Shown piece after piece: positions 9,922 to 24,976 of a DNA stretch of 64,000 bases. The DNA comes from Litoreibacter albidus (GTDB lineage: Bacteria > Pseudomonadota > Alphaproteobacteria > Rhodobacterales > Rhodobacteraceae). The notes beneath the pieces were generated by a model, which searched no databases, was not told where the DNA came from, and saw only the letters and a list, made by a program, of their open reading frames with translations. Where the stretch lies: positions 62,001 through 126,000 of the forward strand of contig NZ_FNOI01000009.1 in NCBI RefSeq assembly GCF_900107015.1, written 5' to 3'. A program made the translations under genes and the position numbers. The number at the start of each line of letters is the position of its first letter. The stretch's first letter is position 1.

Positions 9922-9950
9922 TTTCTTCCTCCCAAAATAATGTATTTAAC

Positions 9951-9961
9951 AATGCATACTT
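9951..9961 (-). promoter_or_regulatory. Motif shared with the GntR promoter
   Basis: Read on the minus strand this is AAGTATGCATT, 30-40 bases before the binding-protein start. It differs at one base from AAGTATGCGTT at 3734-3744 in front of the GntR gene. It is probably an operator of that regulator. A TTGACA sequence lies about 12 bases further upstream on the same strand. Confidence 0.45.
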
Positions 9962-9994
9962 TATTTCAAGTGTCAAATTCAGCGATAACCCCGT

Positions 9995-10015
9995 GTGTTA
10001 ACGTCTTGTTAACAC
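9995..10015. promoter_or_regulatory. Perfect inverted repeat upstream of the sugar operon
   Basis: GTGTTAAC and GTTAACAC (8 bases each) flank a 5-base centre, followed on the plus strand by TTTTT. The position is 74-94 bases upstream of the binding-protein start. No plus-strand gene precedes it, so an operator or activator site is more likely than a terminator. Confidence 0.45.
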
Positions 10016-10089
10016 TTTTTGCACGAGGAATCAGAAGCTTAAGCTAAAATATCGGTGCACGACGGCGGTTCGCCGCGCACCAATTGTTT

Positions 10090-10518
10090 TTACCTCTTGG
10101 CCATTACCATCTGCACAGCCACCGCGCCGGACGGCTCGTGCAGGGCTTCACTCTCGTAGATGAAGCCGTATCGGGTGTAGAACGGGAGGCCGATTTGGTT
10201 GTCTTTGAACACCTCAACCCGCAAGGGGCCTTTCAACCCGACCGCATGATCCACCAACGCCCGCCCGTAACCTTGGCCTATCGCGTCGGGGTCAACGAAA
10301 AGCCCGCCAATTTCTGCGCCAAGCAGGGCGATGAAACCATTCGGCTGGCCGTCCACGACTGACACCCAAGTTTCGGCGTTCGGCAAGTAGATGTTGCGCA
10401 TGTCCTTCGCGACTTGCGCAACAAAAGCCTCCGGCAAAAACGGATGCGCCACCGCGCCCGCGCGCGCCCAGATGTCGACAAGCTGGTCGGTGTCGCTGTC
10501 TTTGAATTTTCTGATCAT
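10090..10518 (-). CDS. GNAT-family N-acetyltransferase
   Basis: A 142-residue single-domain GNAT protein. The acetyl-CoA binding segment is GLFVDPDAIGQGYGRALVDH (about residues 70-89), with the Q-x-x-G-x-G core as QGYGRA. The C-terminal strand and helix hold GFIYESEA. The substrate is unknown. It lies 3 bases after rsgA on the same strand, so the two are probably co-transcribed. A spontaneous operon pairing rather than a shared pathway is likely. Confidence 0.85.
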   Translation of the reverse strand: MIRKFKDSDTDQLVDIWARAGAVAHPFLPEAFVAQVAKDMRNIYLPNAETWVSVVDGQPNGFIALLGAEIGGLFVDPDAIGQGYGRALVDHAVGLKGPLRVEVFKDNQIGLPFYTRYGFIYESEALHEPSGAVAVQMVMAKR

Positions 10519-10521
10519 TGG

Positions 10522-11595
10522 TTAGTCTCTCTTCTTGCTAGATTTTTGAACGGCGCGGATCATTTTGCCCAAGGCTTTGTCCTTGGACTTGCGCTCCGCG
10601 AGGCTGGCCGAGTTAAAGGCATCCTCCGCTTTGAGCTTGCGCCACCGCGCCAAACGGGACGCATCAATCGCCCCCGCTTCAATCGCCGCACGCACCGCAC
10701 AGCCGGGTTCTGTGTCGTGTTGGCAGTCGCCGAACCGGCACTCTGACGAAAGTGCCACAAGGTCGGCGAACACATCCTCAATGCCAGAGGCCGCGTCCGT
10801 CAGTTGCAACTCCCGCATCCCCGGCGTGTCGAGCACCAAGCAGCCGCTTGGAACCCTGTGCAACTGCCGCCGTGTCGTGGTGTGGCGCCCTTTCGCGTCG
10901 TCGTCGCGTATCGTTTGCGTGTCCACGGAGTCTGTCCCCGACAACGCATTTGTCAGCGTGGACTTCCCAACGCCAGACGACCCGATGAACGCCACAGTTT
11001 GACCGCGCCCACACCACGGCGCGAGTTTCGCCAATGGCTCCTCCCCGCGCGCATCCATCGCCACGACCGGAACCCATGAAGACACCTCAGCCGCTTGCGT
11101 GATATAGGGTTCCGCCATGGGGCTGAGGTCAGATTTTGTCAGCACAATCACCGGCGTGATTTCAGCCTCAAAGGCCAAGGCGACGTAGCGCTCCAGCCGT
11201 GCGACGTTAAAATCCTGATTGCACGACGTCACGATAAACGCCGTGTCGATGTTCGCCGCGATCAGCTGGATCTTGCGCCCCGTGCCCGCAGCGCGGCGTT
11301 TCACAACGCTTTTGCGCGTCAGCACACGGCAGGCATTCGGGCGAGACTGGTCATATAGAACCCAGTCCCCGACCGTCGCATCCGGCAAAGGCGGTATCGT
11401 GATTTCCACCTCATCGCCAATAATGTGTAACCCGTTTCGGTGCACCTCCACCACGCGGGCGGGCGGGGTCGCGGACAAGTCGTCCACGCTGATTTGTTGT
11501 GCAAAGAACGGCTCCCAGCCGTACTGCTTAATCGGGGAAGGTGGTCGTATCGTAGCCGCCTGAGGCGGAAAAAAGTCGGAATAGTCCCGTGTCAT
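10522..11595 (-). CDS. rsgA: Ribosome small-subunit-dependent GTPase A
   Basis: A 357-residue circularly permuted GTPase that helps late maturation of the 30S ribosomal subunit. An N-terminal OB fold (about residues 40-110) is followed by GTPase motifs in permuted order: G4 TKSD (153-156), G1 GSSGVGKS (205-212) and G3 DTPG (256-259). A C-terminal zinc-binding site uses Cys286, Cys291, His293 and Cys299. All hallmark residues are present and length is normal. It is a housekeeping gene amid catabolic operons, followed by a GNAT gene. Confidence 0.95.
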   Translation of the reverse strand: MTRDYSDFFPPQAATIRPPSPIKQYGWEPFFAQQISVDDLSATPPARVVEVHRNGLHIIGDEVEITIPPLPDATVGDWVLYDQSRPNACRVLTRKSVVKRRAAGTGRKIQLIAANIDTAFIVTSCNQDFNVARLERYVALAFEAEITPVIVLTKSDLSPMAEPYITQAAEVSSWVPVVAMDARGEEPLAKLAPWCGRGQTVAFIGSSGVGKSTLTNALSGTDSVDTQTIRDDDAKGRHTTTRRQLHRVPSGCLVLDTPGMRELQLTDAASGIEDVFADLVALSSECRFGDCQHDTEPGCAVRAAIEAGAIDASRLARWRKLKAEDAFNSASLAERKSKDKALGKMIRAVQKSSKKRD

Positions 11596-11922
11596 TAGGG
11601 AGTGCTTTCATGTCATGGCGCAAAGCGCGAAGTGTCAGGATATACTGAGGCCGCAATTCTCACGTCGCGCCGGAATGCATACCGACCGCGTTAGTACAGT
11701 GTAGAATTTGCGTCGGGAGGGCTGTTGCCTCCCCACTTTAACGGGACATGAAATCTCCATCCAAAGAACCCTTGGATATTCGCTCCCTACGGTGGCCGTG
11801 TCAATCGGCAGCAACTAGCATACTAGACTATCAATAGTCGGCTTAACTGGTATGCTAGTTACGCAAATGATTCGACAAAGATCTAATTCGGCACACCACA
11901 CGCATCCAACTCGGAGGAACCA
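11596..11922. other. 327-base divergent spacer between rsgA and kdgF
   Basis: It contains the promoters of rsgA (minus strand) and kdgF (plus strand). I see a small GC hairpin (GGGAGG/CCTCCC, 11715-11733), the operator cluster at 11813-11860, and an ACTCGGAGGAACC Shine-Dalgarno just before kdgF. No plausible small gene was found. Confidence 0.6.
11813..11860 (+). promoter_or_regulatory. Twin inverted operators upstream of kdgF, GntR/UxuR-like
   Basis: AACTAGCATAC (11813-11823) and its exact reverse complement (11850-11860) flank a third palindrome, GACTAT-CA-ATAGTC (11826-11839). The right-hand copy in context reads CTGGTATGCTAGTT. It resembles the known UxuR/ExuR uronate operator, which centres on TTGGTATACCAA. 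The two outer sites are 37 bases apart from start to start. They lie 63-110 bases before kdgF. A uronate-responsive GntR repressor is the natural reading, but no such gene is adjacent. Confidence 0.6.
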
Positions 11923-12255
11923 ATGCCTGTTCAAAACCTCTTTTCCGGCGATGCGACCAAGCCAGAGACCGTGGCCCCCGGCCTCTCACGCAAAGTCGGC
12001 GCGCACAGTGACAACGTCATGGTCGTCGAGGTCCACTTCGAGGCGGGCACAACCGCCCCGCTCCACCATCACATTCATGAACAAATCACCTACGTGATGT
12101 CCGGCAAGTTCGAATTCACCGTCGGCGACAAAACCTACATCGTTGGCGCGGGCGACAGCCTCTATAAGCAACCCAACATCGAACACGGCGCAACCTGCCT
12201 CGAGGCGGGTACGCTCTTGGATGTCTTCACCCCGCAGCGCGAAGACTTCTTGTGA
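11923..12255 (+). CDS. kdgF: KdgF-type cupin, unsaturated uronate linearisation
   Basis: A 110-residue single cupin. Characterised KdgF proteins convert the 4,5-unsaturated uronate released by pectate or alginate lyases into its linear ketone. Metal ligands are visible as H48, H50, Q54 (HHHIHEQ) and H88. The C-terminal LLDVFTPQREDFL keeps the Asp100, Phe102 and Arg106 trio that is conserved in KdgF. There is no signal peptide, so it is cytoplasmic. It starts at an ATG behind GGAGG and is followed after 31 bases by a dehydrogenase that could take the next step. Confidence 0.82.
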   Translation: MPVQNLFSGDATKPETVAPGLSRKVGAHSDNVMVVEVHFEAGTTAPLHHHIHEQITYVMSGKFEFTVGDKTYIVGAGDSLYKQPNIEHGATCLEAGTLLDVFTPQREDFL

Positions 12256-12286
12256 TCCCCACATTCAATCCACCGGAGACAATAAC

Positions 12287-13168
12287 ATGACAAAACCCGT
12301 AATCGGATTCATCGGCCTCGGCCTCATGGGCAGCAATATGGTCGAGAACCTCCAGACAAGGGGCTTTGAAGTGGTGGTGATGGGCCGCAAACGTGCCGCC
12401 CTCGATGCTGTCCTGAACCGCGGCAACGCCCGAGAGGCGGCGACCCCCAAAGAGCTCGCCGCCGCCAGCGACATCGTGATGCTCTGCGTGACAACATCCG
12501 AGGTTGTTGAAAGCTTGGTCTACGGTGACGACGGCATCCTTGCAGGCATCAAAGACGGCACGGTGCTAATCGACTTCGGCACCTCTATCCCAGAGTCGAC
12601 CCGCAAAATAGGCGCGGATCTGGCCGCGAAGGGCGCGGGCATGGTCGACGCACCATTGGGCCGCACTCCGGCGCACGCCAAGGACGGGCTGCTCAACATC
12701 ATGGCAGCGGGGGACGAGACCACATTCGCAAAGGTCAAACCAGTGCTCGAAGAGCAGGGCGAAAACGTCTTCTACATCGGCGCGTTGGGCGCGGGCCATG
12801 TCACCAAATTGATCAACAACTTCATGGGCATGACCACGGTTTGCGCAATGAGCCAAGCCTTCGCAGTCGCGGATCGCGCGGGCATCGACCGCCAGCAGTT
12901 GTTCGACATCATGTCGACCGGACCGTCTAATTCACCCTTCATGGGGTTCTGTAAAAAATATGCGGTCGACGGCGTCAGCGATCTGGGTTTCTCCATCAAC
13001 AATGCCAACAAGGATTTAGCCTACTTCGTGCAGATGGCCGCCGACATGGGCACACGCGCGCAGATTGCCGAGGGCACATCCGCCAACCTAACCGCCGCTG
13101 TGGAGGCTGGGTTGGGCGACGGAAACGTGCCCGAAATCTTCGACTACTACCTCAAACTCAGCCGCTAA
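12287..13168 (+). CDS. Beta-hydroxyacid dehydrogenase family oxidoreductase (possible uronate ketone reductase)
   Basis: A 293-residue NAD(P)-dependent enzyme. The Rossmann motif is GFIGLGLMGSNM (about residues 6-17), and the catalytic Lys lies in GHVTKLINNF (about residues 165-174). These are the hallmarks of the 3-hydroxyisobutyrate / tartronate-semialdehyde reductase family. I chose the ATG at 12287 after CCGGAGAC because an upstream in-frame ATG (12143) lies inside kdgF. From memory, some members of this family reduce the alginate monomer ketone (DEH) to KDG. Following kdgF directly, that is the best guess; the usual 3-hydroxyisobutyrate or tartronate roles remain possible. Confidence 0.75.
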   Translation: MTKPVIGFIGLGLMGSNMVENLQTRGFEVVVMGRKRAALDAVLNRGNAREAATPKELAAASDIVMLCVTTSEVVESLVYGDDGILAGIKDGTVLIDFGTSIPESTRKIGADLAAKGAGMVDAPLGRTPAHAKDGLLNIMAAGDETTFAKVKPVLEEQGENVFYIGALGAGHVTKLINNFMGMTTVCAMSQAFAVADRAGIDRQQLFDIMSTGPSNSPFMGFCKKYAVDGVSDLGFSINNANKDLAYFVQMAADMGTRAQIAEGTSANLTAAVEAGLGDGNVPEIFDYYLKLSR

Positions 13169-13298
13169 ACGGAGCCAACCGCTCTGTTTCAACGCCGCGC
13201 CGGTCTCCCCACTGGTGCGGCCTAAATCCTCATATTTAACCTTGCGTAAACTTAGGAACAAAAATAGAACGACGCTGACCACTTTTAAGGACATCGTC

Positions 13299-14486
13299 AT
13301 GACCATGTTTCGCGCCGCGCTGATCTTAGGCCTGCTCTCTGCTGTCGGCCCCTTCGCAATCGACATGTATCTGCCGGCAATGCCAGCAATCGCTCTTGAT
13401 CTGGGCGCGGATGTCACAGCGGTTCAACTGACGCTAACGGCCTACTTCGTGGCCTTCGGTGTCGCGCAGCTTTTCTACGGCCCGTGGGCCGATCAATCGG
13501 GCCGCAAACTGCCGCTTTACTTCGGGGTTTGCGTCTTTGCGCTGGCCACGATCGGCTGCGCATTGGCCCCGACTATCGGCTGGCTCGTGGCGTTTCGCGC
13601 ACTGCAAGGGTTGGGCGGCGCGGTGCTCATGGTCGTGCCCCGCGCGGTGATCCGCGACATGCACACCGGCACCGAGGCCACGAAACTGATGGCGATGGTG
13701 ATGCTGGTTATTTCCGTGTCTCCGATGCTCGCGCCGCTGGCGGGTAGCGGCCTTATCGTCATTGGCGACTGGCGCTTGATCTTCTGGGCGCTGGCCCTCG
13801 CGGCCGTGCTGAGCCTGATTTTAACCGCCACCGCCCTGCCGGAAACGCTTGAGCCGTCCAAGCGCGTCGCAATCAATTTCCGCAACCTCTGGAAGGGCGG
13901 GCGCACGCTGTTTCGCGATCCCATCTTCATGGGTTTGACTTTCATCGGCGGCTTCGGTTTCGCCAGCTTTATGGTCTTCGTGGCCAGCGCCGCCTTCGTC
14001 TATTCGGGCCAGTTCGGCCTTAGCCCCACGGGCTTCAGTCTGGCATTCGCGGTCAACGCAATCGGGTTCTTTTCCGCGTCGCAAGCCGCCGGACCACTGG
14101 GCGCGAAATACGGTATCCCCAAGGTGATTTACTGGGCCGCAATCGGCTTCGCCGCTTTCTCCATCGGGCTTTACGCCGTGGGGCTTTTGGGCTTCGCCAC
14201 GCTGCCCGTCATCATCGCGGGGCTGTTTTTGGCCAACGCCTGCTTGGGCCTTATCATCCCTACAACCATGGTCATGGCCTTGGACCCCCACGGCGAGATC
14301 GCGGGGCTGGCGTCATCCTTGGGCGGCACGTTGCAGATGGTCACGGGCGGCGTGATGATCGCCGTGACAGGCGTGTTCTTCGATGGCACCGCGCTGCCGA
14401 TGATCGCGATGATTGCCATGTGCGCCGTCTTTTCCTTGGCGCTGACCTTGATGACGCTGCGGGCCATGACACGGTTACAGGGGTAG
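13299..14486 (+). CDS. MFS drug-resistance type transporter, Bcr/CflA family
   Basis: A 395-residue inner-membrane protein with about 12 helices. The N-terminal GPFAIDMYLPAMPAI and the loop YGPWADQSGRKLPLYFG are typical of Bcr/CflA drug:proton antiporters. The ATG at 13299 follows AAGGA by 8 bases; a 28-residue upstream extension is not hydrophobic and is unlikely. It is a single-gene unit, and its 3' end overlaps the convergent beta-propeller gene by 12 bases. The exported substrate is unknown. Confidence 0.9.
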   Translation: MTMFRAALILGLLSAVGPFAIDMYLPAMPAIALDLGADVTAVQLTLTAYFVAFGVAQLFYGPWADQSGRKLPLYFGVCVFALATIGCALAPTIGWLVAFRALQGLGGAVLMVVPRAVIRDMHTGTEATKLMAMVMLVISVSPMLAPLAGSGLIVIGDWRLIFWALALAAVLSLILTATALPETLEPSKRVAINFRNLWKGGRTLFRDPIFMGLTFIGGFGFASFMVFVASAAFVYSGQFGLSPTGFSLAFAVNAIGFFSASQAAGPLGAKYGIPKVIYWAAIGFAAFSIGLYAVGLLGFATLPVIIAGLFLANACLGLIIPTTMVMALDPHGEIAGLASSLGGTLQMVTGGVMIAVTGVFFDGTALPMIAMIAMCAVFSLALTLMTLRAMTRLQG

Positions 14487-15308
14487 CGGCTCCAGCTTGG
14501 TTAACCCGTCAGGGCCCATGTTGGCGATAAAGATGCTCCCGTCCTCAGCCACGGCACCGCCGTGCCCATAGGTCGCAAACGTGCGGCACCGCCCGATCAG
14601 CACCCCGTCCCTGTCATAGATCGACAGGCGCGGGGTCTGATCCGTCACCAATAACTTGTCCCCCATGACTTCCAGCGCCATGGGTTTGTGCAGCCCCGTA
14701 ATGCTGCTCAGATAATCGCCATTTGCGCCGAAAATCTGCACGCGGTTGTTCTCTCGGTCAGCCACCGCGATACGCCCGTCGTGAAGCACCGCAACCGCGT
14801 GGGGCGTGGTGAACTGCCCCTCGCCCGCCCCCGCACCGCCGATAGAATGGCTATGCGTAAAGTCCGGATTGAAGACATGTAGCTGCGAATTCCCGTAGCC
14901 GTCGGTAACAAATATTCGCCCGTGTTCATCCCGCGCACAGTCGGTCGGGTGGTTGAACGGCCGCCCCAACGCAGGCCGGTTGCCGCAATGCAGACGGTGG
15001 CATTCGTTGAACTCCGCATCCAGCAACAGCACTTGGTGCCCGTCCACATCCGTCACCGCCATAAGGTCCGCACCAAGCGCGCGAATGCCATGCCCCAACA
15101 CCACGTCACGCAGCGAAATCTTGCGCACCAACGCACCATTCGGCGACAGAACCAACAGCTCCGGCGACCTGCGCAGCAGGGCCACCACCGCGCCATTGAA
15201 CACCGTCACGTCAGATATACCGCTGAAGTCGATCCCCTGCGCCCAGTCCCGCTGGCTTTCCATGACGCGGTAGAACCGCGCCCCCAGTCCAACGATCTGG
15301 TCAGGCAT
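14475..15308 (-). CDS. NHL-repeat / six-bladed beta-propeller protein
   Basis: A 277-residue protein without a signal peptide. Repeated blades are visible, for example NHPTDCARDEHGRIFVTDGY, FTTPHAVAVLHDGRIAVADR and KPMALEVMGDKLLVTDQ, each with the NHL-like pattern of a turn, G-rich strand and D/N end. I chose the ATG at 15308 since it overlaps the amidase stop by one base (TGATG). It is the last gene of the TRAP-amidase operon. Propellers of this type may be lyases, lactonases or binding scaffolds; which one is unclear here. Confidence 0.75.
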   Translation of the reverse strand: MPDQIVGLGARFYRVMESQRDWAQGIDFSGISDVTVFNGAVVALLRRSPELLVLSPNGALVRKISLRDVVLGHGIRALGADLMAVTDVDGHQVLLLDAEFNECHRLHCGNRPALGRPFNHPTDCARDEHGRIFVTDGYGNSQLHVFNPDFTHSHSIGGAGAGEGQFTTPHAVAVLHDGRIAVADRENNRVQIFGANGDYLSSITGLHKPMALEVMGDKLLVTDQTPRLSIYDRDGVLIGRCRTFATYGHGGAVAEDGSIFIANMGPDGLTKLEPLPL

Positions 15309-16483
15309 CAGCGCTTCAACAGCGGCTCGATCTTGGCCGCCGCGTCCAGAATTGCATGGTCGCGCCACGCGGGGGCCGTCAGCATCAAACCCGCGCCCGG
15401 CGTGCCTGCAATCGGCAAGGAGATGGAGCACCCGTCGATGACATTGCCCAAAGTTGTGTTGCGCAACGCCAGCAGGTTGATCCGGTCAAACGCCGCGTCC
15501 TCCTCCAGCGCTGAGAGTTGCGGCGGCAAGATCGCGACGCTTGGCAACAGGACGCCCGACAGTCCCAGCTCCGCCTGCGCCGCCTCGACAATCCGCGCGC
15601 GCAGGGCAAGGGTCTTGGCATACTCAACCGCCGACGCCTGATCCGCACGCGCCATGCGCAGCTTGACTTTGGGGTCGATCAATTCGGGCGTCTGCTCATA
15701 CTGCACCGCGTGGTGCACACGGCTTTCCACAGCGGAAAAGTGCCAGATCGGCAGCTGGGCATAGATGTCCAAGAAATCGAGCTTGCGGCGCTCCACTATA
15801 AAGCCCGCAGCTTCCAACAATGGGATAGCCGCGTCGAACGCCGTAGCCACACCGTCGTCCAATTCGGTCATGCCGAAGTTTTCCGGCACGATCAGATGGG
15901 TCAACGCGCCGCTTTGCTGGTTGGCAGGTGCCGACAACACGTCATAAGCGCGGCGCACGGTTTCAAGGTCCCGCGCCATCGGCCCCACGCTGTCGAGCGT
16001 GTGAGACAACGCCACCGCGCCCTTGGACGAGATAGAAGCCGCCGTAGGCTTCAGCCCCACCACGCCGCAAAATGCCGCCGGAATCCGAAGGGAGCCGCCG
16101 GTGTCCGTCCCCAACGCCACGTCGATGATCCCCTGCGCCAACGCTGACGCCCCGCCGGAGGTAGAGCCGCCCGCGATTGCGCCCTCCACCAAGGGCGTCA
16201 TGGCGGTGCCGTAATGCGGGTTCAGCCCAAGGCCGGAATAGGCAAATTCCGTCATGTTGTTATGCCCGACCAGCGTGGCCCCCGCCGCGCGCAGCAACGC
16301 CACTGCATCGGCGTCCTCACGCGCCGCAGGCAAGACCTCGCGCGCCTTGGACCCTGCTTTGGTTACATAGCCCTTCACGTCGAACAGGTCTTTGACGCCA
16401 ACGCGCACCCCCGAAAGCGGCCCCTCCGGCGTATCTTCGGGCGCGAAGCTTTGGGTAAATTCAGGAGAAGTTATCTGCGACAT
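15308..16483 (-). CDS. Amidase-signature family hydrolase
   Basis: A 391-residue enzyme of the amidase-signature family, which hydrolyses C-N amide bonds. The Ser-cisSer-Lys triad is visible: Lys31 (VGVKDLFDV), the cis-Ser in GGSTSGG (107-109) and the nucleophile Ser131 in TDTGGSLRIP. The chain is shorter than the usual 450-500 residues. It lies 11 bases after the TRAP large permease gene, which implies that the imported solute contains an amide. No signal peptide, so it acts in the cytoplasm. Confidence 0.9.
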   Translation of the reverse strand: MSQITSPEFTQSFAPEDTPEGPLSGVRVGVKDLFDVKGYVTKAGSKAREVLPAAREDADAVALLRAAGATLVGHNNMTEFAYSGLGLNPHYGTAMTPLVEGAIAGGSTSGGASALAQGIIDVALGTDTGGSLRIPAAFCGVVGLKPTAASISSKGAVALSHTLDSVGPMARDLETVRRAYDVLSAPANQQSGALTHLIVPENFGMTELDDGVATAFDAAIPLLEAAGFIVERRKLDFLDIYAQLPIWHFSAVESRVHHAVQYEQTPELIDPKVKLRMARADQASAVEYAKTLALRARIVEAAQAELGLSGVLLPSVAILPPQLSALEEDAAFDRINLLALRNTTLGNVIDGCSISLPIAGTPGAGLMLTAPAWRDHAILDAAAKIEPLLKR

Positions 16484-16494
16484 TGTCCGTCCTA

Positions 16495-17793
16495 TCAGTA
16501 GCTTAGGTCAACCAGCCCCGTCGCGATGGACGGGAACAGCGTGAGTAACACTACCGCCATAACAAGCAGCAGGAAATACGGCACGACCATGCGCGTGATC
16601 TCGAAGATGCTGCGGTTGGTCAGCCCTTGGATCACAAACAGGTTGAACCCCAGCGGCGGCGTAATCTGCGCCATCTCCACCACGATAATCAGGTAGATGC
16701 CGAACCAGATCGGGTCAATCCCCGCCGCAATGACCGACGGCAGCACCACCGATGTGGTCAGAACCACAATGGAAATCCCGTCCAGAAAACAGCCCAGCAG
16801 GATGAAGAACAGCGTCAACACCGCAATCAGCCCATAGGTGCTCAACCCGCTGGAGGAGATGACCTGCGCCAGATCGGATGGCAGTCCGGAAAAGCTCATC
16901 GCGGAGGTCAGGAACGCCGCGCCCAGCAGGATAAACCCGATCATGGCGGAGGTCCGCGTCGCGCCGACAAGCGCCTCAATGAAAGCCGATTTGGTCAGGG
17001 ACCGCCCCAAAGCCGCAATGATAAGCGACCCCATCACGCCCAAGGCAGCGGCTTCCGTCGCGGTGGCAACACCTGCGTAAATCGAACCGATCACGCAGAA
17101 AATCAGGCCAACAACGGGGATCAGAAGCTTCATGCCACGAAGCCGTTCCAACATGGGAACACGGGCCTCGCGCGGGGGCATTTTGCCTTTGTTCAGCAGC
17201 GACCAGATCACGATATAGCTGGAAAACATCGCCATCAGCATCAGGCCAGGCACAACACCGGCGATGAACAAACGGTTGATGGAGACCTGCGCGGCGACGC
17301 CGTAGACGATCATCACAACCGACGGCGGAATAAGCAGCCCAAGGGTGCCCGATCCTGCCAGTGACCCGATGGTCAGCCGGTCGTCATAGCCGCGCTTTGA
17401 CAGCTCCGGCAGGGAGATTTTGCCGATGGTGGCCGTCGTCGCAGCGGAAGAGCCGGACACCGCCGCGAAGATGCCGCAGCCCACCACGTTCACATGCGCA
17501 AGACCACCCGGAAGGCGACCAAGCCACGGGGCAAGACCGGAAAACAAGTCCTCCGCCAAGCGGGTGCGGTACAGGATTTCGCCCATCCAGATAAACAGCG
17601 GCAGCGCTGTCAGCGTCCAGTTCGCGGAGGCCGACCACATCGTCGTTGCGAAAATGGCGTCCGCCGGTGTCGGCGTGAACACCATGAACACAACCAGCCC
17701 CGAAATGAGCAGCGATACCCCGACCCAGACCCCAAGGCCCAGCAGCAAGAACAGGACGAAAAGAAGCGTGACAACTTGTATGAGACTGTCCAT
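16495..17793 (-). CDS. TRAP transporter large permease, DctM type
   Basis: A 432-residue membrane protein with about 12 helices. It contains ALPLFIWMGEIL, NVVGCGIFAAVSGSSAATTATIG and TPPLGFNLFVIQG, all typical of DctM subunits. DctM uses the sodium gradient to drive solute uptake. It starts immediately after the DctQ stop (TAAATG) and is followed by the amidase. Confidence 0.95.
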   Translation of the reverse strand: MDSLIQVVTLLFVLFLLLGLGVWVGVSLLISGLVVFMVFTPTPADAIFATTMWSASANWTLTALPLFIWMGEILYRTRLAEDLFSGLAPWLGRLPGGLAHVNVVGCGIFAAVSGSSAATTATIGKISLPELSKRGYDDRLTIGSLAGSGTLGLLIPPSVVMIVYGVAAQVSINRLFIAGVVPGLMLMAMFSSYIVIWSLLNKGKMPPREARVPMLERLRGMKLLIPVVGLIFCVIGSIYAGVATATEAAALGVMGSLIIAALGRSLTKSAFIEALVGATRTSAMIGFILLGAAFLTSAMSFSGLPSDLAQVISSSGLSTYGLIAVLTLFFILLGCFLDGISIVVLTTSVVLPSVIAAGIDPIWFGIYLIIVVEMAQITPPLGFNLFVIQGLTNRSIFEITRMVVPYFLLLVMAVVLLTLFPSIATGLVDLSY

Positions 17794-18303
17794 TTAGACC
17801 TCTGTGCTTTCGGTGGATGCGGTGGTGATTTCAACCGGAAGGCCAAGGAACAGCCGGATCGCGCGCTCTGCCATGGCAGCCGTGAACAACACGCTCCCCA
17901 AGACCATTGCAATTTGCGGAATCCACAGCGGGACGGCGATCAAGCCGTGGCTGACGTCGTTGTAGCGATAGCTGTCCCACACGAAATCGATCAGGGCGAC
18001 GGTGCCCCATGCCAGCATCGCCAGCGCAATCAGGCTGGCGGCGATGTCCATGTAGCGGCCAAAGGGATCACGGATCAGCCCGCGCAGCGACGTCACACGG
18101 ATGTGGCTGCCGTGGATCAACGCGGACGGCAGCGCCAGAAAGATCGAGGCGCTCAACGCCCAAGCGGCGAAGTCATCAGCGGACGGTATCTGGTGCCCAA
18201 TGGCGCGCAGAAAGATTTGAAGAATGATCAAAACCGCGATGAAGCACAGCATGGCCGCAGCCAGCCCCCCACACCCTTTGTAGATCCAACGAGAAAAGGC
18301 CAT
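17794..18303 (-). CDS. TRAP transporter small permease, DctQ type
   Basis: A 169-residue protein with four predicted helices (about residues 12-33, 49-68, 88-108 and 130-152). It fits the DctQ family, with the helix-2 region DDFAAWALSASIFLALPSALIHGSHIRV. DctQ scaffolds DctM. It lies directly before DctM with no gap, and 77 bases after the binding-protein gene, where an intrinsic terminator sits. Confidence 0.93.
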   Translation of the reverse strand: MAFSRWIYKGCGGLAAAMLCFIAVLIILQIFLRAIGHQIPSADDFAAWALSASIFLALPSALIHGSHIRVTSLRGLIRDPFGRYMDIAASLIALAMLAWGTVALIDFVWDSYRYNDVSHGLIAVPLWIPQIAMVLGSVLFTAAMAERAIRLFLGLPVEITTASTESTEV

Positions 18304-18327
18304 CGCACTATGTCCTGATTTTGCTCT

Positions 18328-18358
18328 AAAAAAGGTGCCGCATCGCCTGCGGCACCTT
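18328..18358 (-). terminator. Intrinsic terminator/attenuator between DctP and DctQ
   Basis: A perfect 11-base-pair stem (AAGGTGCCGCA / TGCGGCACCTT) has a 5-base loop and is followed on the minus strand by six Ts. This is a textbook intrinsic terminator, 22 bases after the binding-protein stop. It probably lets only part of transcription reach the membrane subunits. Confidence 0.8.
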
Positions 18359-18380
18359 AGGTTTCAAACGTGAAGCGCTG

Positions 18381-19349
18381 TTATTTGGACAGCGCGTCGA
18401 TCACGGCCTGACCTTCTTCGCCAGTCTCCGCAGCCCATTCCGCACTCATCGTTTTGGCGATGGTGTCGAAGTCGGCGCGCAGACCCTCAGGTGTCTCGAT
18501 AACCTGCATTCCGTTCTCGGCCAGCGTGTCGGTGGCGGATTTGGTCGCCGCAACCGCTGCTTCCCAGCCGCGTGCTTCTGCCAAGTCGGATGCTTCCTGA
18601 ACGGCCGCCGCAACGTCGGCAGGCAGCGCGTCATAGGCGTCTTTGTTTACCAGAATGACGTTCTTCGGGATGAACGCTTTAACGTCGTAGTAATACGGCA
18701 CGTAGTCCCAAGCTTGGCTGTCAACGCCCGTGGTTGGCGATGTGATCATGCCGGAAATGACGCCTGTAGAGAACGCTTGCGAAATCTCGGAGGTGGCGAT
18801 CGTTGCCGGAACCGCGCCCATCAGCTCTGCCAAACGGGCGGTCGCTGGGTTGTAGGCGCGGAACTTCACGCCCTCAAACGACGACGCATCTTTGACTTCG
18901 GTTTGCATGTAGATGCCTTGTGGCGGCCACGGTGCGGAATACAGCATCACCAAACCGTCTTCGGCGAATTTCTCTTGGTAGATAGGCTTGGTCGCATCCC
19001 AGAGCTTCTTTGCGTCCTCGAATGTGGTCGCCAGCAATGGAACCGCATCGGCAGAGTAAATCGCATCTTCGTTGCCCAACGCGGACACGAGGACTTCGCC
19101 GATTGGCACGATACCGCGCTGCACGCCGCGCTTCAGGTCCGCACGCTTCAGCAGCACGGAGTTGGACACAACGTCGATCTTCAACGCGCCATCGGTCAGG
19201 CGCTCTACGTCTTCGGCAAAGCTGCGCGCGGTCTGGGTCAGGTAGTTGCCATCTGGGGCGTGGGCGGACATTTTCCATGTCTCGGCAGACGCCGCGACCG
19301 GCATGGCAAGCAGTGCAAACGCGCTAGCGGAAAAAAGAAGTGGTTTCAT
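18381..19349 (-). CDS. TRAP transporter substrate-binding protein, DctP type
   Basis: A 322-residue periplasmic protein. The signal peptide MKPLLFSASAFALLAMPVAASAE is cleaved after residue 22 or so. FEGVKFRAYNPATARLAELMGAVP holds the conserved Arg that binds a ligand carboxylate in DctP proteins. Thus the solute is likely an organic acid. The amidase downstream suggests that it also carries an amide. It is followed by a terminator-like hairpin before DctQ. Confidence 0.93.
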   Translation of the reverse strand: MKPLLFSASAFALLAMPVAASAETWKMSAHAPDGNYLTQTARSFAEDVERLTDGALKIDVVSNSVLLKRADLKRGVQRGIVPIGEVLVSALGNEDAIYSADAVPLLATTFEDAKKLWDATKPIYQEKFAEDGLVMLYSAPWPPQGIYMQTEVKDASSFEGVKFRAYNPATARLAELMGAVPATIATSEISQAFSTGVISGMITSPTTGVDSQAWDYVPYYYDVKAFIPKNVILVNKDAYDALPADVAAAVQEASDLAEARGWEAAVAATKSATDTLAENGMQVIETPEGLRADFDTIAKTMSAEWAAETGEEGQAVIDALSK

Positions 19350-19427
19350 GTTGGTTTCCCTTGAGGTTGGTTAATTCGAAATGGCCGCCGTCTTGCGCGG
19401 CGTTGCCATGGGTTACGTGTTACGGGG

Positions 19428-20099
19428 TCAGGCCGGAAACTCGCGCTGATCAAGCGACCAGAGCAGCGAGAAGGTTTGCGCATCTTCGACAGCGACTTCC
19501 AAGCTTTCGCGCATCTGATGCAGCGCGGCTTCTGCGGCGGGCTCTGTGGTGGTGTCGATCACGATAGCCGGTGCCAACACGCGGCCTTGTGTCTTCTCGG
19601 ACGGCAGCGGTGTGGACAGGGTCTCGTCCGGCACAAGATACTGGCAGTGCAAGACGCCATCAATCTGCGCGATATCGTTCAGCAATTGGTGAATGCGCTC
19701 AGCGTCGATGCCGTGCGCGCCCTCTGGCTTGTTCAGCACAACCATGGCGACATTGCCGCCCGCGCCAAACCCGACTTCCATCGCCACAGACATCACCCGA
19801 CGCCGTGTGTTCGACATCCGCGAGAAGTTGAGGTTCGACCAGCTCGTCTGCTGCGTGAACGCCTTGCGGTAGGCGTCCGTGGTGAAGCAACCAAGGTTGT
19901 CCGCACGGTAAAGCGCCAGATAGCGACGCGCCGAGCCGGACACCGCGCGGTAGCGACGTGCACCCGTGAAGCCCGGAATGCGCACGCGCTCTTCCATGTG
20001 CTCGCGGTCGTACCACAGGTTGAAATCCGCTTCGTGGTCGGGATCGACATCGCTCCAAACGTACAGTTGCGCTGGTTTTGATGTGTCGTGCTCTGTCAT
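19428..20099 (-). CDS. Unknown protein, dimeric alpha/beta-barrel type (two repeats)
   Basis: A 223-residue protein without signal peptide. The N-terminal half (about residues 10-75) reads DFNLWYDREHMEERVRIPGF...ARRYRAVSG...YLALYRA. This pattern is common in EthD/antibiotic-monooxygenase-like dimeric alpha/beta-barrel proteins. The C-terminal half may be a second copy. I chose the ATG at 20099 (MTEHDTSK). It lies between the LysR gene and DctP, so it is probably the first gene of the TRAP operon. Whether it is an enzyme is unknown. Confidence 0.65.
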   Translation of the reverse strand: MTEHDTSKPAQLYVWSDVDPDHEADFNLWYDREHMEERVRIPGFTGARRYRAVSGSARRYLALYRADNLGCFTTDAYRKAFTQQTSWSNLNFSRMSNTRRRVMSVAMEVGFGAGGNVAMVVLNKPEGAHGIDAERIHQLLNDIAQIDGVLHCQYLVPDETLSTPLPSEKTQGRVLAPAIVIDTTTEPAAEAALHQMRESLEVAVEDAQTFSLLWSLDQREFPA

Positions 20100-20291: not shown

Positions 20292-21188
20292 CTACAACGC
20301 CGTCGCTACCCCATGCGCCTTGGCGCAGGCCACGGCAAGCTCCGATATCGCGCGGTATAGCTCCGCGTCGGAGGTCTGATGCCACGTGCAATAGAGTGGC
20401 AAATCAGGCAGTTGCGCCTCAAGGTTCAGGCGCACCAATGTGCGCGATTCCAGATCGGACCCACAGGGCAGCGTGGCCACGCCCAAACCGCGCTCCGTCA
20501 GCCGCACGATCGCGGCGAGCGAGGTCACGCAGTGTAAAACCGGCGGGCGCAAATGGTGCGCGTTAAACAGCTCCAGCGTGGATAAATACGGTCGCGATTT
20601 GCGGGTGAAGGTGATCAACGGCAGGTCGGCAATGTCGGGAATCGTCAGCACGCCACTGGGCAAACTTGCGGCCAATGCCTCGCTGGTGAACCACGCCAGT
20701 TGCAACGGTGGCAGCGGCATGGTCGAGACCATTTCCGCCTGCGTCTCATCTGTGGTGATCAACAGGTCCAGCGCGCCGCGCTCGAACTGGCTGGCGAGGC
20801 TGTTGGTCGGCTCCACCGTTAACTCCAACTCCAGCTTCGGGAAGGCTGTGGCAATCTCGGAGATTAGCTCCCCCAGCCAAGTGTGCACGACTGAGCTCAC
20901 CAGCCCCAACCGCACACGGCCCGCGCCCACCGTCACAATGCTCATGGTTTCGCGCAGCGACGCCTCCGCCGCGATCACGCGCTGCGCTTTTTCCAGCATC
21001 AAGGTGCCCGCCGCCGTCAGGCGGACTTCGTGATGCTCGCGGTCGAACAGCTGCGCGCTGAACTCGGTCTCTAACGATGATATCCGGCTGGACACCGTGG
21101 CTTGCGACACATTCAACTGCTGGGCCGCAGCCCGAAAGCTGCCCAAAGAGGCGACGCGCAAAAACGTCTCTAGAAATCGGGTGTTCAC
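20292..21188 (-). CDS. LysR-family transcriptional regulator
   Basis: A 298-residue regulator. The helix-turn-helix occupies about residues 3-60 (LGSFRAAAQQLNVSQATVSSRISSLE), followed by the effector-binding domain from about residue 88. It is on the same strand as the TRAP operon, which starts 192 bases downstream, so it may activate that operon in response to the imported compound. LysR genes usually lie divergent from their targets, so the arrangement is slightly unusual. Confidence 0.93.
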   Translation of the reverse strand: MNTRFLETFLRVASLGSFRAAAQQLNVSQATVSSRISSLETEFSAQLFDREHHEVRLTAAGTLMLEKAQRVIAAEASLRETMSIVTVGAGRVRLGLVSSVVHTWLGELISEIATAFPKLELELTVEPTNSLASQFERGALDLLITTDETQAEMVSTMPLPPLQLAWFTSEALAASLPSGVLTIPDIADLPLITFTRKSRPYLSTLELFNAHHLRPPVLHCVTSLAAIVRLTERGLGVATLPCGSDLESRTLVRLNLEAQLPDLPLYCTWHQTSDAELYRAISELAVACAKAHGVATAL

Positions 21189-21313: not shown

Positions 21314-22990
21314 CTACAAGCTGGGCATCAAGCTGATCAACTCACGGGTGTAGGGATCGCGGGGGGCTTCGAACAAAGCCTCCGTCTCGGCCAGTTCGCA
21401 CAGCTGCCCGTTGCGCATGACCGCCACGCGGTCGCACATCTGGCGCACGACGGGCAGGTCGTGGCTGATGAACAGGATCGTCAGATCAAGCGCGTCGCGC
21501 AGGTCTTTCAGAAGGTTCAAAATCTGCGCCTGAATGGACACATCCAGCGCCGAGGTCGGCTCGTCACAAATCAGAAATCTGGGCCGTGTGGCAAGGGCGC
21601 GGGCGATGGAGATACGCTGGCGCTGACCGCCGGAGAACTCATGCGGAAACTTAGCCCCCGCCGCCGCGCCAAGCCCGACAACCTCCAGCAAGTCACCGAC
21701 AATTCTGCTGGTCTCGCTGGCCGTCTCGCTTAGGCGGTTGTGGTGGATTGGCTCCGCCACGATATCGCGCACCCGCATCCTTGGGTTCAATGATGAATAC
21801 GGATCTTGAAAGATCATCTGGATCTGACGTCGCAGCGCTTGGCGCTCATGCGACGACGCGATTTTCGCCATGTCCTGACCGTCAAAGGTGATGCTGCCTG
21901 TGTCTGGCGCGTGAATGCCCGCGATCATCCGCGCGACGGTGGATTTGCCGCTGCCGGACTCTCCCACCAGCCCCAAAACCTCGCCGCGGTTGATGTCGAA
22001 ATTTAGATCCTTAACCGCATCAATATAGCTGCGGTTCTTTGGCAGGATGGCGTTGCGGGTCAGGAACCGCATGCCCAATCCGCGCACCTGAACCAGCGGT
22101 CCGGTGCCCTGATTTTCGTCTTTTCCCTTGGAGCGCAGCCAGTCATCCGTCAGCGTCATTTCCTGCGGTGCAGGGGCACCATCGGGCTGGTAGGTGAGGC
22201 TGGGGAAGCGGTCCAACTTGCGTTCCCCGCGGGGAACCGCCGCCAAAAGGCTTTGTGTATAAGGGTGTTGCGGGTCGTGGATGATCTGCGCGGTCTTGCC
22301 TTCCTCGACCAAGGCCCCGTGATACATGACCGCCACGCGGTCAGCGGTTTGCGCGATCACCCCCATATCATGGGTCACCAAGATGACCCCCACACCGCGA
22401 CTGACGGCGAGGTCACGGATGAGGTCAAGGATTTGCGCCTGCACCGAGACATCTAGCGCCGTGGTGGGTTCATCCGCGATGATCAGATCGGGCTGCGAGC
22501 ACAGCGCCAGCGCGATCACCACCCGTTGCCGCATCCCGCCGGAAAACTGGTGCGGGTACTGGGTAATGCGTGTTTCCGCATCGGCAATCCCGACCTGATC
22601 CAACAGGGAGACCGCCTCGTCGTGGGCCTCGGCTCTGGTCATGCGGCGGTGGGTGCGGATGGTTTCCGTCAACTGCTGCGCCACAGTGTAGAGCGGGTTC
22701 AGGCTGGTAAGCGGGTCTTGAAAGATCATCGACACCCGCGCCCCGCGCAGGTTGGCAATGCTGCGGGCGTCCTGCCCGTCGATCAGGATTTCACCCCCAG
22801 CCACGCGACCGGGGGCATCGAGCAGCCCCATGACCGCCGTGCCGATGGTGGATTTTCCGGCGCCGGATTCCCCGACCAGCCCAAGGATTTCGCCCCGCTC
22901 CACCGACAGTGTGACGTCGCGCACTGCGGTGAAGGTGGACTTGCGGGACGGGTATTCGACCGTCAGATTTTTGATAGCGAGAAGGGACAT
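21314..22990 (-). CDS. Double-domain ABC transporter ATPase, dipeptide/opine type
   Basis: A 558-residue protein with two complete ATPase domains. Domain 1: Walker A GESGAGKST (about residues 39-47), signature FSGGMRQRV, Walker [13 protein letters not shown]. Domain 2: Walker A GESGSGKST, signature FSGGQRQRI, Walker B FLICDEPTSALD. The oligopeptide-type C-terminal motif is present after each. It is the last gene of the operon, 15 bases after the DppC-type permease. It fuels uptake of peptides or similar solutes. Confidence 0.95.
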   Translation of the reverse strand: MSLLAIKNLTVEYPSRKSTFTAVRDVTLSVERGEILGLVGESGAGKSTIGTAVMGLLDAPGRVAGGEILIDGQDARSIANLRGARVSMIFQDPLTSLNPLYTVAQQLTETIRTHRRMTRAEAHDEAVSLLDQVGIADAETRITQYPHQFSGGMRQRVVIALALCSQPDLIIADEPTTALDVSVQAQILDLIRDLAVSRGVGVILVTHDMGVIAQTADRVAVMYHGALVEEGKTAQIIHDPQHPYTQSLLAAVPRGERKLDRFPSLTYQPDGAPAPQEMTLTDDWLRSKGKDENQGTGPLVQVRGLGMRFLTRNAILPKNRSYIDAVKDLNFDINRGEVLGLVGESGSGKSTVARMIAGIHAPDTGSITFDGQDMAKIASSHERQALRRQIQMIFQDPYSSLNPRMRVRDIVAEPIHHNRLSETASETSRIVGDLLEVVGLGAAAGAKFPHEFSGGQRQRISIARALATRPRFLICDEPTSALDVSIQAQILNLLKDLRDALDLTILFISHDLPVVRQMCDRVAVMRNGQLCELAETEALFEAPRDPYTRELISLMPSL

Positions 22991-23005
22991 GTGCTGGACC
23001 TCTAC

Positions 23006-23944
23006 TTAGCGCGATTTCGGGTCAAGCACGTCGCGCAGCCAGTCCCCCAGAAGGTTCACCGACAGCACCAACAACGCCAGCGTCAGCCCCGGATAGATCA
23101 GCATCCAGCGCTCTCCGGAAAAGATGAAGTCATTCCCGATACGAATGAGCGTGCCCAGCGATGGCTCCCCTGCGGGGATACCCAGACCGAGGAAGCTTAG
23201 CGTTGCTTCCCCAAGGATGGCGACACCCAGATTGATCGTCGCAATCACCAGCACCGGACCCATGACATTGGGCAGAATGTGGCGTGCCATAATCAGCCAT
23301 GGGCCGCGCCCGATCACCTGCGCCGCCATCACGTATTCGCGGCTTTTCTCAACCATCGCGGAGGCGCGCACGGTGCGCGCGACCTGCGGCCAGATCGAGA
23401 GGGCCATGGCCAGAATGATCACGAAGACGGCCAGTTCATCATGCTGATCGCGCGACAGAAAACTGCGCGTCACCCCGTCAATCAACAAGGCGACCATGAT
23501 CGCCGGAAAGGTCATCTGGATATCAACGATCCGCATGATAATCGCGTCCACCAAGCCGCCGAAATACCCCGCCAGAAGCCCCAGAAACAGCCCTGCCACC
23601 ACAGCGAGGCTCACCGACACCGCGCCCACGAACACAGAGGTGCGGGTGCCGTAAAGGATCGTCGAGAACAGGTCGCGCCCTTGGTTGTCCGTGCCCAGCA
23701 AAAAGGCGGGATCGCCGCCACTGTTCCACGCGGGCGGGAGCAGGGAATTCATCAGGTCGATGGAGCCTTTGTCGAACGGGTCGAAAGGGGCAATCACAGG
23801 GGCCAGAAGCGCCGCGCCGATCATCAGCACGAAGACCAGACCGGCGACCACCGTCACCGGAGAGCTGCGGAATTTATAACCCGCGTCGCTGTCGAGCAGG
23901 CGCATGATGAGGTTGGGGGATCGCTCTGGGTTCATTTGCGTCAC
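23006..23944 (-). CDS. ABC transporter permease, DppC type
   Basis: A 312-residue membrane protein. The motif LGTDNQGRDLFSTILYGTRTS before the helical core and the EAA loop AAQVIGRGPWLIMARHILPN are typical. The C-terminus is LLGDWLRDVLDPKSR. It starts inside the stop of the DppB-type gene (4-base overlap). Confidence 0.94.
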   Translation of the reverse strand: MTQMNPERSPNLIMRLLDSDAGYKFRSSPVTVVAGLVFVLMIGAALLAPVIAPFDPFDKGSIDLMNSLLPPAWNSGGDPAFLLGTDNQGRDLFSTILYGTRTSVFVGAVSVSLAVVAGLFLGLLAGYFGGLVDAIIMRIVDIQMTFPAIMVALLIDGVTRSFLSRDQHDELAVFVIILAMALSIWPQVARTVRASAMVEKSREYVMAAQVIGRGPWLIMARHILPNVMGPVLVIATINLGVAILGEATLSFLGLGIPAGEPSLGTLIRIGNDFIFSGERWMLIYPGLTLALLVLSVNLLGDWLRDVLDPKSR

Positions 23945-24912: not shown

Positions 24913-24938
24913 GTCATTCTCCGGCGGGGGCAAGGCAT

Positions 24939-24965
24939 AAGCGGCCCCAAGGTGCGGGGCCGCTT
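24939..24965 (-). terminator. Intercistronic hairpin after peptide binding-protein gene
   Basis: A perfect 10-base-pair stem (AAGCGGCCCC / GGGGCCGCTT) has a 7-base loop, 11 bases after the binding-protein stop. No T run follows. It is likely an RNA stabiliser or weak attenuator. Confidence 0.7.
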
Positions 24966-24976
24966 CGGGCTAGGGT

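What the first reader, a model, noticed from the sequence alone, without database searches (positions are those of the whole stretch)
14475..20099. TRAP operon with amidase, beta-propeller and alpha/beta-barrel protein
A DctPQM importer is encoded with an amidase-signature enzyme, an NHL-type propeller and a possible two-repeat EthD-like protein. The DctP Arg suggests a carboxylate and the amidase suggests an amide. I do not know a characterised pathway with this set, so it may be an undescribed catabolic route.
Basis: inference. Interest (0 to 1): 0.5.

Follow-up and report, generated by a model that had tools for sequence, protein, structure and literature searches.

The report
Pyroglutamate-type uptake operon with uncharacterised enzymes
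A bacterium related to marine roseobacters carries a conserved gene set that probably imports pyroglutamate (a cyclic, amide-containing relative of glutamate) or a close analogue; the importer type is known, but three proteins encoded with it are uncharacterised and suggest an untested way to break such rings open.

Summary
The set is real: LysR, a two-repeat alpha/beta-barrel (EthD-like) protein, DctP-DctQ-DctM, an amidase-signature enzyme and an NHL propeller, minus strand, 21188-14475. It recurs in other Rhodobacterales and partly in Burkholderiaceae. DctP's closest solved relatives are 2pfy and 2pfz, the Bordetella pertussis pyroglutamate (5-oxoproline) binders. In relatives the set often lies beside a 5-oxoprolinase: EthD is within 10 kb of an OPLAH-type gene in 10 of 42 Burkholderiaceae genomes that have both (0.15 expected), and beside PxpABC elsewhere. 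So the ligand is probably 5-oxoproline or a close lactam acid, and the transport half is not new. The propeller resembles peptidyl-alpha-hydroxyglycine amidating lyase (PAL): an Arg/His/Tyr/His/His set matching PAL's active site is present in all 18 TRAP-linked members examined; the Arg is kept in 2 of 14 unlinked ones. PAL-plus-amidase chemistry would fit ring opening and deamination of 2-hydroxy-5-oxoproline (cyclic alpha-ketoglutaramate) to 2-oxoglutarate. That, and the role of EthD, are inference; fold comparison ranks non-enzymatic TRIM NHL domains as high as PAL. No biochemistry was available.

The parts
20292..21188 (-). LysR-family regulator, first gene of the conserved set
   Evidence: PF03466/PF00126; LysR precedes EthD in all 12 loci L018-L029
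19428..20099 (-). EthD-like two-repeat alpha/beta-barrel protein, 223 aa, function unknown
   Evidence: No Pfam family above cut-off; 48 invariant columns in 22 aligned sequences, including FNxWYDREHMxER and LSTPLP; model pLDDT 87.5, Foldseek best 2pgc, then 5f9p
18381..19349 (-). DctP, TRAP substrate-binding protein of the pyroglutamate-binding subfamily
   Evidence: PF03480; best solved relatives 2pfy E 6.7e-105 and 2pfz E 1.1e-72; R164 invariant in 15 of 15
18304..18380 (-). stem-loop with a U tract between dctP and dctQ (possible attenuator)
   Evidence: fold of 18304-18384: z-score -3.26; not reported by the terminator scan
17794..18303 (-). DctQ, small TRAP membrane subunit
   Evidence: PF04290 E 3.4e-18
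16495..17793 (-). DctM, large TRAP membrane subunit
   Evidence: PF06808 E 4.7e-93; TIGR00786 above cut-off
15308..16483 (-). amidase-signature hydrolase, 391 aa
   Evidence: PF01425 E 4.4e-62; Lys, cis-Ser and Ser motif positions K31, S107, S131 kept in all 27 alignment rows listed, a few loci twice
14475..15308 (-). NHL six-bladed propeller, PAL-like, 277 aa; no signal peptide seen by eye
   Evidence: PF01436; alignment to PAL; 3fvz TM 0.84, Z 31.6; R-H-Y-H-H set

Best explanation
This is a catabolic operon for 5-oxoproline (pyroglutamate) or a very close five-membered lactam acid. Shown here by comparison: DctP belongs with the pyroglutamate-binding DctP proteins, and the EthD/DctPQM set lies beside 5-oxoprolinase genes in a part of its relatives. 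Inferred: DctP binds the lactam acid through R164 and DctQM import it. Imported 5-oxoproline can go to glutamate through PxpABC, which this genome encodes on another contig beside a second DctPQM. The enzymes made here act on the lactam or on its alpha-hydroxylated form: the PAL-like propeller opens a carbinolamide (2-hydroxy-5-oxoproline, the ring form of alpha-ketoglutaramate), and the amidase removes the amide to give 2-oxoglutarate and ammonia. The EthD-like protein does an unknown step on the lactam (hydroxylation, or D/L isomerisation). LysR senses the substrate or a product. The confidence given is for the substrate class; for the propeller-amidase mechanism alone I would say about 0.3.
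For: DctP: 2pfy E 6.7e-105 and 2pfz E 1.1e-72, then 1e-60 for the third hit and 6.4e-24 for the fourth; the two B. pertussis receptors bind pyroglutamate (passages in PMC5812351; PMC12344293; PMC13274462). Positional linkage: of 58 EthD loci tabulated, 15 have OPLAH or PxpABC genes within 10 kb, in several arrangements (L028, L031, L035, L038, L157, L188). In a fixed set of 268 genomes of the family of Paenalcaligenes, 10 of the 42 that have EthD (E <= 1e-60) and fused OPLAH have them within 10 kb; 0.15 expected. In Accumulibacter loci EthD lies with PxpABC, D-glutamate cyclase and an Nramp-type transporter; the 5-oxoproline importer PxpT is most like that family. Own genome: PxpABC plus a DctPQM whose DctP is 45% identical to this one. 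Propeller: PAL H585 and Y654 align with H and Y of this protein (5wm0 numbering); H690 and H786 fit by end offsets if no gap lies between; R-H-Y-H-H in 18 of 18 TRAP-linked members, Arg in 2 of 14 others. Cyclic ketoglutaramate differs from pyroglutamate only by OH for H at C2 (PMC9806585 passage), is 99.7% of the pool and opens slowly at about pH 7.2 (PMC10452834 passage).
Against: No ligand or activity was measured. No 5-oxoprolinase lies beside this operon; PxpABC is on another contig. Genome-level co-occurrence is not informative: PxpA is in 201 of 290 genomes of the window's family and in 61 of 80 genomes that lack both EthD and OPLAH. 43 of 58 EthD loci showed no 5-oxoprolinase within 10 kb, some with short flanks, and 32 of the 42 genomes with both EthD and OPLAH have them far apart or on separate contigs. 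Amidase and propeller are not always together: L019 has an amidase and no propeller; L031, L164 and L165 have a propeller and no operon amidase; L034 has neither. TRIM-type NHL domains, which are not enzymes, match the propeller as well as or better than PAL. Sneathiella (L036) has EthD beside lyase- and dehydratase-like genes instead.
Confidence: 0.72

Rival explanations
1. The operon imports plain 5-oxoproline only, as a second copy of the PxpABC-linked system; amidase and propeller are minor helpers or act on other amides.
For: DctP subfamily; the genome's other DctPQM lies beside PxpABC; several relatives have OPLAH or PxpABC and no amidase hit.
Against: The amidase follows DctM in 10 of the 12 loci L018-L029; the PAL-type residues are invariant in the TRAP-linked propellers.
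Confidence: 0.35
2. The substrate is a different lactam or imide acid, or a linear amide acid, that fits a pyroglutamate-like pocket; the amidase hydrolyses it directly and the propeller is a structural or regulatory protein.
For: Amidase-signature relatives with solved structures include biuret hydrolase and malonamidase E2; a 48% identical amidase sits in a neighbouring TRAP/DUF2848/M24 module in L020, L021 and L033; TRIM NHL scaffolds match the propeller well.
Against: DctP is far closer to pyroglutamate binders than to any other solved TRAP protein whose ligand I know (the ligand of the third hit, 6wgm, I did not look up); the propeller keeps PAL's active-site set.
Confidence: 0.2
3. The EthD-like protein is a 5-oxoproline racemase or isomerase that lets L-specific 5-oxoprolinases use the D form. 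(This is a reading of one part and can hold together with the others.)
For: It accompanies two unrelated 5-oxoprolinase types and several transporter types and, in Accumulibacter loci, D-glutamate cyclase.
Against: No racemase with this fold is known to me; the listed fold neighbours are mostly oxygenases, chlorite dismutase-like proteins and coproheme decarboxylases, with one isomerase.
Confidence: 0.2

Closest known systems
DctP6/DctP7 (BP1887/BP1891) pyroglutamate TRAP receptors of Bordetella pertussis
   Same: Nearest solved relatives of this DctP (2pfy, 2pfz; that these entries are DctP7 and DctP6 is recalled); TRAP context; a gene for a eukaryotic-type 5-oxoprolinase is reported nearby (passage).
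   Different: No 5-oxoprolinase beside the window operon; amidase, PAL-like propeller and EthD-like protein are not mentioned in the passages I read.
pxpTABC operon of Corynebacterium glutamicum
   Same: Transporter plus enzymes for 5-oxoproline (abstract and passages of PMC13274462).
   Different: Nramp-like transporter, GntR regulator and PxpABC there; TRAP, LysR, amidase, EthD-like protein and propeller here.
Peptidyl-alpha-hydroxyglycine alpha-amidating lyase (PAL; 3fvz, 5wm0)
   Same: Six-bladed propeller; matching Arg, three His and Tyr.
   Different: No PHM domain and no signal peptide seen; lies in an import operon; about 24% identity.
omega-amidase (glutaminase II) pathway
   Same: Would give 2-oxoglutarate and ammonia from ketoglutaramate (passage).
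   Different: Known omega-amidases are of the nitrilase (Nit2) family (recalled); the enzyme here is of the amidase-signature family.

Membership tests
Pyroglutamate-binding DctP subfamily | Closest solved relatives are 2pfy/2pfz | tested here: met
   E 6.7e-105 and 1.1e-72
Pyroglutamate-binding DctP subfamily | Conserved carboxylate-binding Arg | tested here: met
   R164 invariant in 15 of 15 rows; role of the Arg from PMC4646407 passages
Pyroglutamate-binding DctP subfamily | Binds pyroglutamate | not testable with these tools
   Needs purified protein
5-oxoproline catabolic operon (Pxp or OPLAH type) | 5-oxoprolinase gene in the cluster | tested here: not met
   PxpA is on contig C4, the window on C8; no full-length fused OPLAH in the genome, only split HyuA/HyuB-like genes at 34% and 29% identity. 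Met in a part of the relatives
PAL | Active-site Arg, three His and Tyr | tested here: met
   H585 and Y654 aligned residue by residue; H690, H786 by end offsets; Arg by position only; numbers and roles of the PAL residues are recalled
PAL | Partner hydroxylase PHM or secreted location | tested here: not met
   No PHM among the operon proteins; N-terminus MPDQIVGLG, by eye no signal peptide
PAL | Cleaves an alpha-hydroxyglycine (carbinolamide) | not testable with these tools
   Needs enzyme assay
Amidase-signature family | Ser-cisSer-Lys triad | tested here: met
   K31, S107, S131; kept in the 27 rows listed; residue roles recalled
EthD (Pfam PF07110, accession recalled) | Match to the family model | tested here: not met
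   No Pfam hit at E <= 0.001; at E <= 10 only DUF4286, below its cut-off
Dimeric alpha+beta barrel fold | Repeated ferredoxin-like halves | tested here: met
   Model secondary structure and Foldseek matches, TM about 0.46-0.65 on the query

The most novel reading that the evidence does not exclude
A 5-oxoproline route that needs no ATP: the EthD-like barrel hydroxylates C2 of imported 5-oxoproline, or 2-hydroxy-5-oxoproline is imported as such; the cytoplasmic PAL-like propeller opens the carbinolamide ring to alpha-ketoglutaramate; the amidase releases ammonia and 2-oxoglutarate. It would be the first ring-opening enzyme for cyclic ketoglutaramate and the first use of PAL chemistry in small-molecule catabolism that I know of.
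Probability: 0.15. Interest if true: 0.8.

Novelty: new variant of a known kind. Interest (0 to 1): 0.5.

Why it matters
5-Oxoproline forms on its own from glutamine and glutamate (abstract) and should be common. The conserved set names three uncharacterised proteins that travel with its transporter type and gives each a testable role. If the propeller opens cyclic ketoglutaramate, it would show how cells can deal with a lactam that is called enzymatically inert and opens slowly at physiological pH, and would place PAL-type enzymes in catabolism.

Tried and rejected
Genome-level co-occurrence as evidence: rejected. PxpA is in 17 of 22 genome handles with EthD loci (G023 and G310 look like one genome counted twice) but also in 201 of 290 genomes of the window's family. 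In the 268-genome set, 24 of 25 tested genomes with EthD and without OPLAH have PxpA, but so do 61 of 80 that lack both EthD and OPLAH (80 of the 97 such genomes were tested; nine of the 19 misses are under 1 Mb).

Amidase as a simple replacement of 5-oxoprolinase: not supported. Of the 11 amidase-operon genomes tested (the window's own and those of L018, L019, L022-L029), 10 also have PxpA; the exception, L023, is a MAG.

Propeller as plain NHL scaffold: not excluded. TRIM-type NHL domains rank above PAL in whole-protein sequence and fold comparison; PAL is the first hit only with the N-terminal half as query. I prefer PAL because the invariant residues coincide with PAL's active site.

NHL relatives outside the operon: 15 loci fetched, chosen by hand from the list, show no EthD, OPLAH, PxpA or PxpBC hit; one (L199) has this TRAP type and a PF04199 cyclase-family gene.

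Promoter and terminator scans gave no more than chance. Rfam found nothing and no tRNA was found in the window. Solved-structure search with EthD gave one hit at E 1.3, taken as chance. The fused HyuA/HyuB protein was called OPLAH-type from its domains and fused length; NCBIfam's nearest model is caprolactamase, far below its cut-off, so its own substrate is inferred. The split HyuA/HyuB-like genes beside EthD in L182 and near it in L183 (30-32% identity) were not counted as 5-oxoprolinase.
Full report
What is there. On the minus strand, from 21188 down to 14475, lie LysR, an EthD-like gene, dctP, dctQ, dctM, an amidase-signature gene and an NHL-propeller gene. dctQ and dctM abut, dctM and the amidase are 11 bases apart, and the propeller's likely ATG (15308) overlaps the amidase stop. 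A Bcr/CflA-type MFS gene at 13215-14486 is convergent and ends the unit. A stem-loop with a U tract sits between dctP and dctQ.

Conservation. One scan of the genome collection with the EthD-like protein gave 27 loci; the nearest, 84% identical, is from Sulfitobacter undariae. In the 12 loci L018-L029 (eleven Rhodobacterales records, two of one species, and one Marinobacterium) the order LysR-EthD-DctP-DctQ-DctM is kept in all 12. Amidase and propeller both follow in 9 of the 12; L019 has no propeller hit, and L020 and L021 have the propeller but carry an amidase in an adjacent TRAP/DUF2848/M24 module. Of two further Rhodobacterales loci, L033 has the propeller and L034 neither. The set is patchy: of 295 genomes drawn from the window's family, 12 have a match at E <= 1e-5, the own genome included, and only one other (G023) is above 50% identity. 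In 268 genomes of the family of Paenalcaligenes (Burkholderiaceae, name recalled), 92 have an EthD-like match at E <= 1e-20.

Substrate. Against all solved structures, DctP's best hits are 2pfy (E 6.7e-105) and 2pfz (1.1e-72), then 6wgm (1e-60; ligand not looked up), then a drop to 6.4e-24. I recall that 2pfy and 2pfz are the B. pertussis receptors DctP7 and DctP6; the call lists them as 'putative exported protein'. Passages in a review (PMC5812351), a 2025 paper (PMC12344293) and a 2026 paper (PMC13274462) say that both receptors bind pyroglutamate, the last with a KD of 0.3 uM for DctP7 and a eukaryotic-type 5-oxoprolinase gene nearby. The original paper (Rucktooa 2007) I have not seen. R164 is invariant in the 15 sequences aligned.

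Neighbourhood evidence. Of the EthD loci fetched, 58 were tabulated; duplicates (L021, L189, L194), the remnant L044 and stretches fetched for other genes were left out. The loci were picked by hand across the score range. 15 of 58 have OPLAH-type or PxpABC genes within 10 kb; 28 of 58 have a DctP of this kind within 3 kb; 11 have both. Arrangements differ: PxpABC divergent (L028, L035), PxpABC upstream and co-directional (L188; Accumulibacter loci L038, L039, L041, L042), OPLAH downstream (L031, L032), OPLAH divergent (L157, L159-L162, L172). As a test without picking, in the fixed set of 268 genomes 73 have EthD at E <= 1e-60, 42 of these have a fused OPLAH, and 10 of the 42 have the two within 10 kb, against 0.15 expected for random placement in 5.5 Mb; these genomes are related, so the ten are not independent events. 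The other 32 have them far apart or on separate contigs. A control of 15 loci around other NHL genes showed none of the 5-oxoprolinase genes. In three Accumulibacter loci EthD is with a D-glutamate-cyclase gene, an asparaginase-like gene and an Nramp-type transporter (L038, L039, L041; families read on the relatives L033 and L040); C. glutamicum PxpT, required for growth on 5-oxoproline, is most like the Nramp family. In another group (L173-L176) EthD is beside an MFS transporter. So EthD pairs with different transporters and, where a hydrolase is near, often with a 5-oxoprolinase.

Own genome. PxpABC is on contig C4, beside a second DctPQM whose DctP is 45% identical to this one. Full-length fused OPLAH was not found; split HyuA/HyuB-like genes are present at 34% and 29% identity. 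So the genome can probably already turn 5-oxoproline into glutamate, and the window operon may serve a related lactam.

The propeller. With the N-terminal half as query, PAL (3fvz) is the first hit among solved structures, with H and Y under PAL H585 and Y654 (5wm0 is numbered as the full-length protein). The alignment end puts the next His under 690, and the alignment end puts the last His under 786, if no gap lies between; the Arg is matched by position only. In the family these residues are R44, H71, Y136, H168 and H247 (numbering of alignment A3; add 2 for the 277-aa protein). All five are invariant in the 13 aligned. In one search, 31 relatives were scored, after leaving out L067, which duplicates L031. 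With the window, all 18 with this TRAP type in the fetched stretch have R-H-Y-H-H (L020 and L021 are one species); of 14 without it, 2 have the Arg (L198, L210), and the rest have Gln, Asn or Ala. H-Y-H is kept in all 31; the last His in all 26 where the alignment reached it. These 31 were found by similarity and are related, so the contrast is suggestive only. By fold, PAL is among the best matches (Foldseek rank 10, TM 0.84; VIA rank 7, Z 31.6 over 265 residues, the highest identity in the 50 rows shown at 24%), but TRIM-type NHL domains rank above it.

Chemistry. PAL splits an N-acyl alpha-hydroxyglycine into amide and glyoxylate (passage in PMC12636437). 2-Hydroxy-5-oxoproline has the same bond in a ring; it differs from pyroglutamate only by OH for H at C2 (PMC9806585 passage), makes up 99.7% of ketoglutaramate and opens slowly at about pH 7.2 (PMC10452834 passage). 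A propeller of PAL type would give the open amide, and an amidase would finish. The operon has both. This is inference; no assay exists. Repeated pairing supports a link: in L178 the set DctPQM-NHL-EthD-amidase occurs in another order with a more distant EthD and amidase (31% and 32% identity), and in L199 the same TRAP type lies with an Arg-type propeller and a PF04199 hydrolase-family gene. Against it, propeller and amidase also occur one without the other.

The EthD-like protein. 223 aa, strongly conserved, two-half barrel; nearest solved folds are an unknown marine protein (2pgc), an anthrone-oxidase-like protein (5f9p), chlorite dismutase-like proteins, coproheme decarboxylases, sulfur oxygenase reductase and putative monooxygenases, and lower down a chalcone isomerase, at modest TM-scores. 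This allows an oxygenase or an isomerase and decides nothing.

Literature. Searches gave no paper that describes this gene set; only open-licence PubMed Central papers are held, and I judged from listings. Of the papers cited I saw abstracts or passages only.

Verdict. The uptake part is a new member of a known 5-oxoproline TRAP type. The enzyme part is uncharacterised, conserved and gives sharp tests; I call the whole a new variant of a known kind.

Noticed in passing
window 18304-18380 (-): Stem-loop with U tract between dctP and dctQ. Folding the same gap in 11 of the loci L018-L029 (all but L021) gave stems in each, with a run of five T in four (L018, L020, L023, L025); no shuffle control was made for these. 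Possibly limits membrane-subunit expression relative to DctP.
   Followed up: partly
L020, L021, L033, L162, L188 (and in part L159): Near the EthD set lies a DUF2848 gene with an amidase-signature gene and, except in L159 (cut), another DctM; in L020, L021 and L033 also an M24-type gene; in L033, L159, L162 and L188 a D-glutamate-cyclase-like gene. Substrate unknown.
   Followed up: no
L190 (own genome, contig C4): PxpABC divergent from a second DctPQM of the same subfamily, with a winged-helix (HTH_27/MarR-like) gene nearby whose relatives also occur near OPLAH in other loci.
   Followed up: partly
L160 about 9652-15804: Both DctM genes match in two pieces each and EthD was not called as a gene of its own; this may be decay of the system in that genome.
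   Followed up: no
L044 10001-10120: Sulfitobacter dubius matched only about 40 residues of EthD (85% identity) and no other gene of the set: a possible remnant of a lost operon.
   Followed up: no
L036, L043: Sneathiella has EthD after an isocitrate-lyase-family-like gene and LeuC/LeuD-like genes in L036, and after LeuD-like pieces in L043 (family names by eye): a different context for the same family.
   Followed up: no
window 21314-26605 (-): By eye a peptide-type ABC transporter gene set lies next to the operon; among L018-L029 only L022 and L026 showed a like set in the fetched flank, at lower identity, so it is not part of the conserved set.
   Followed up: no
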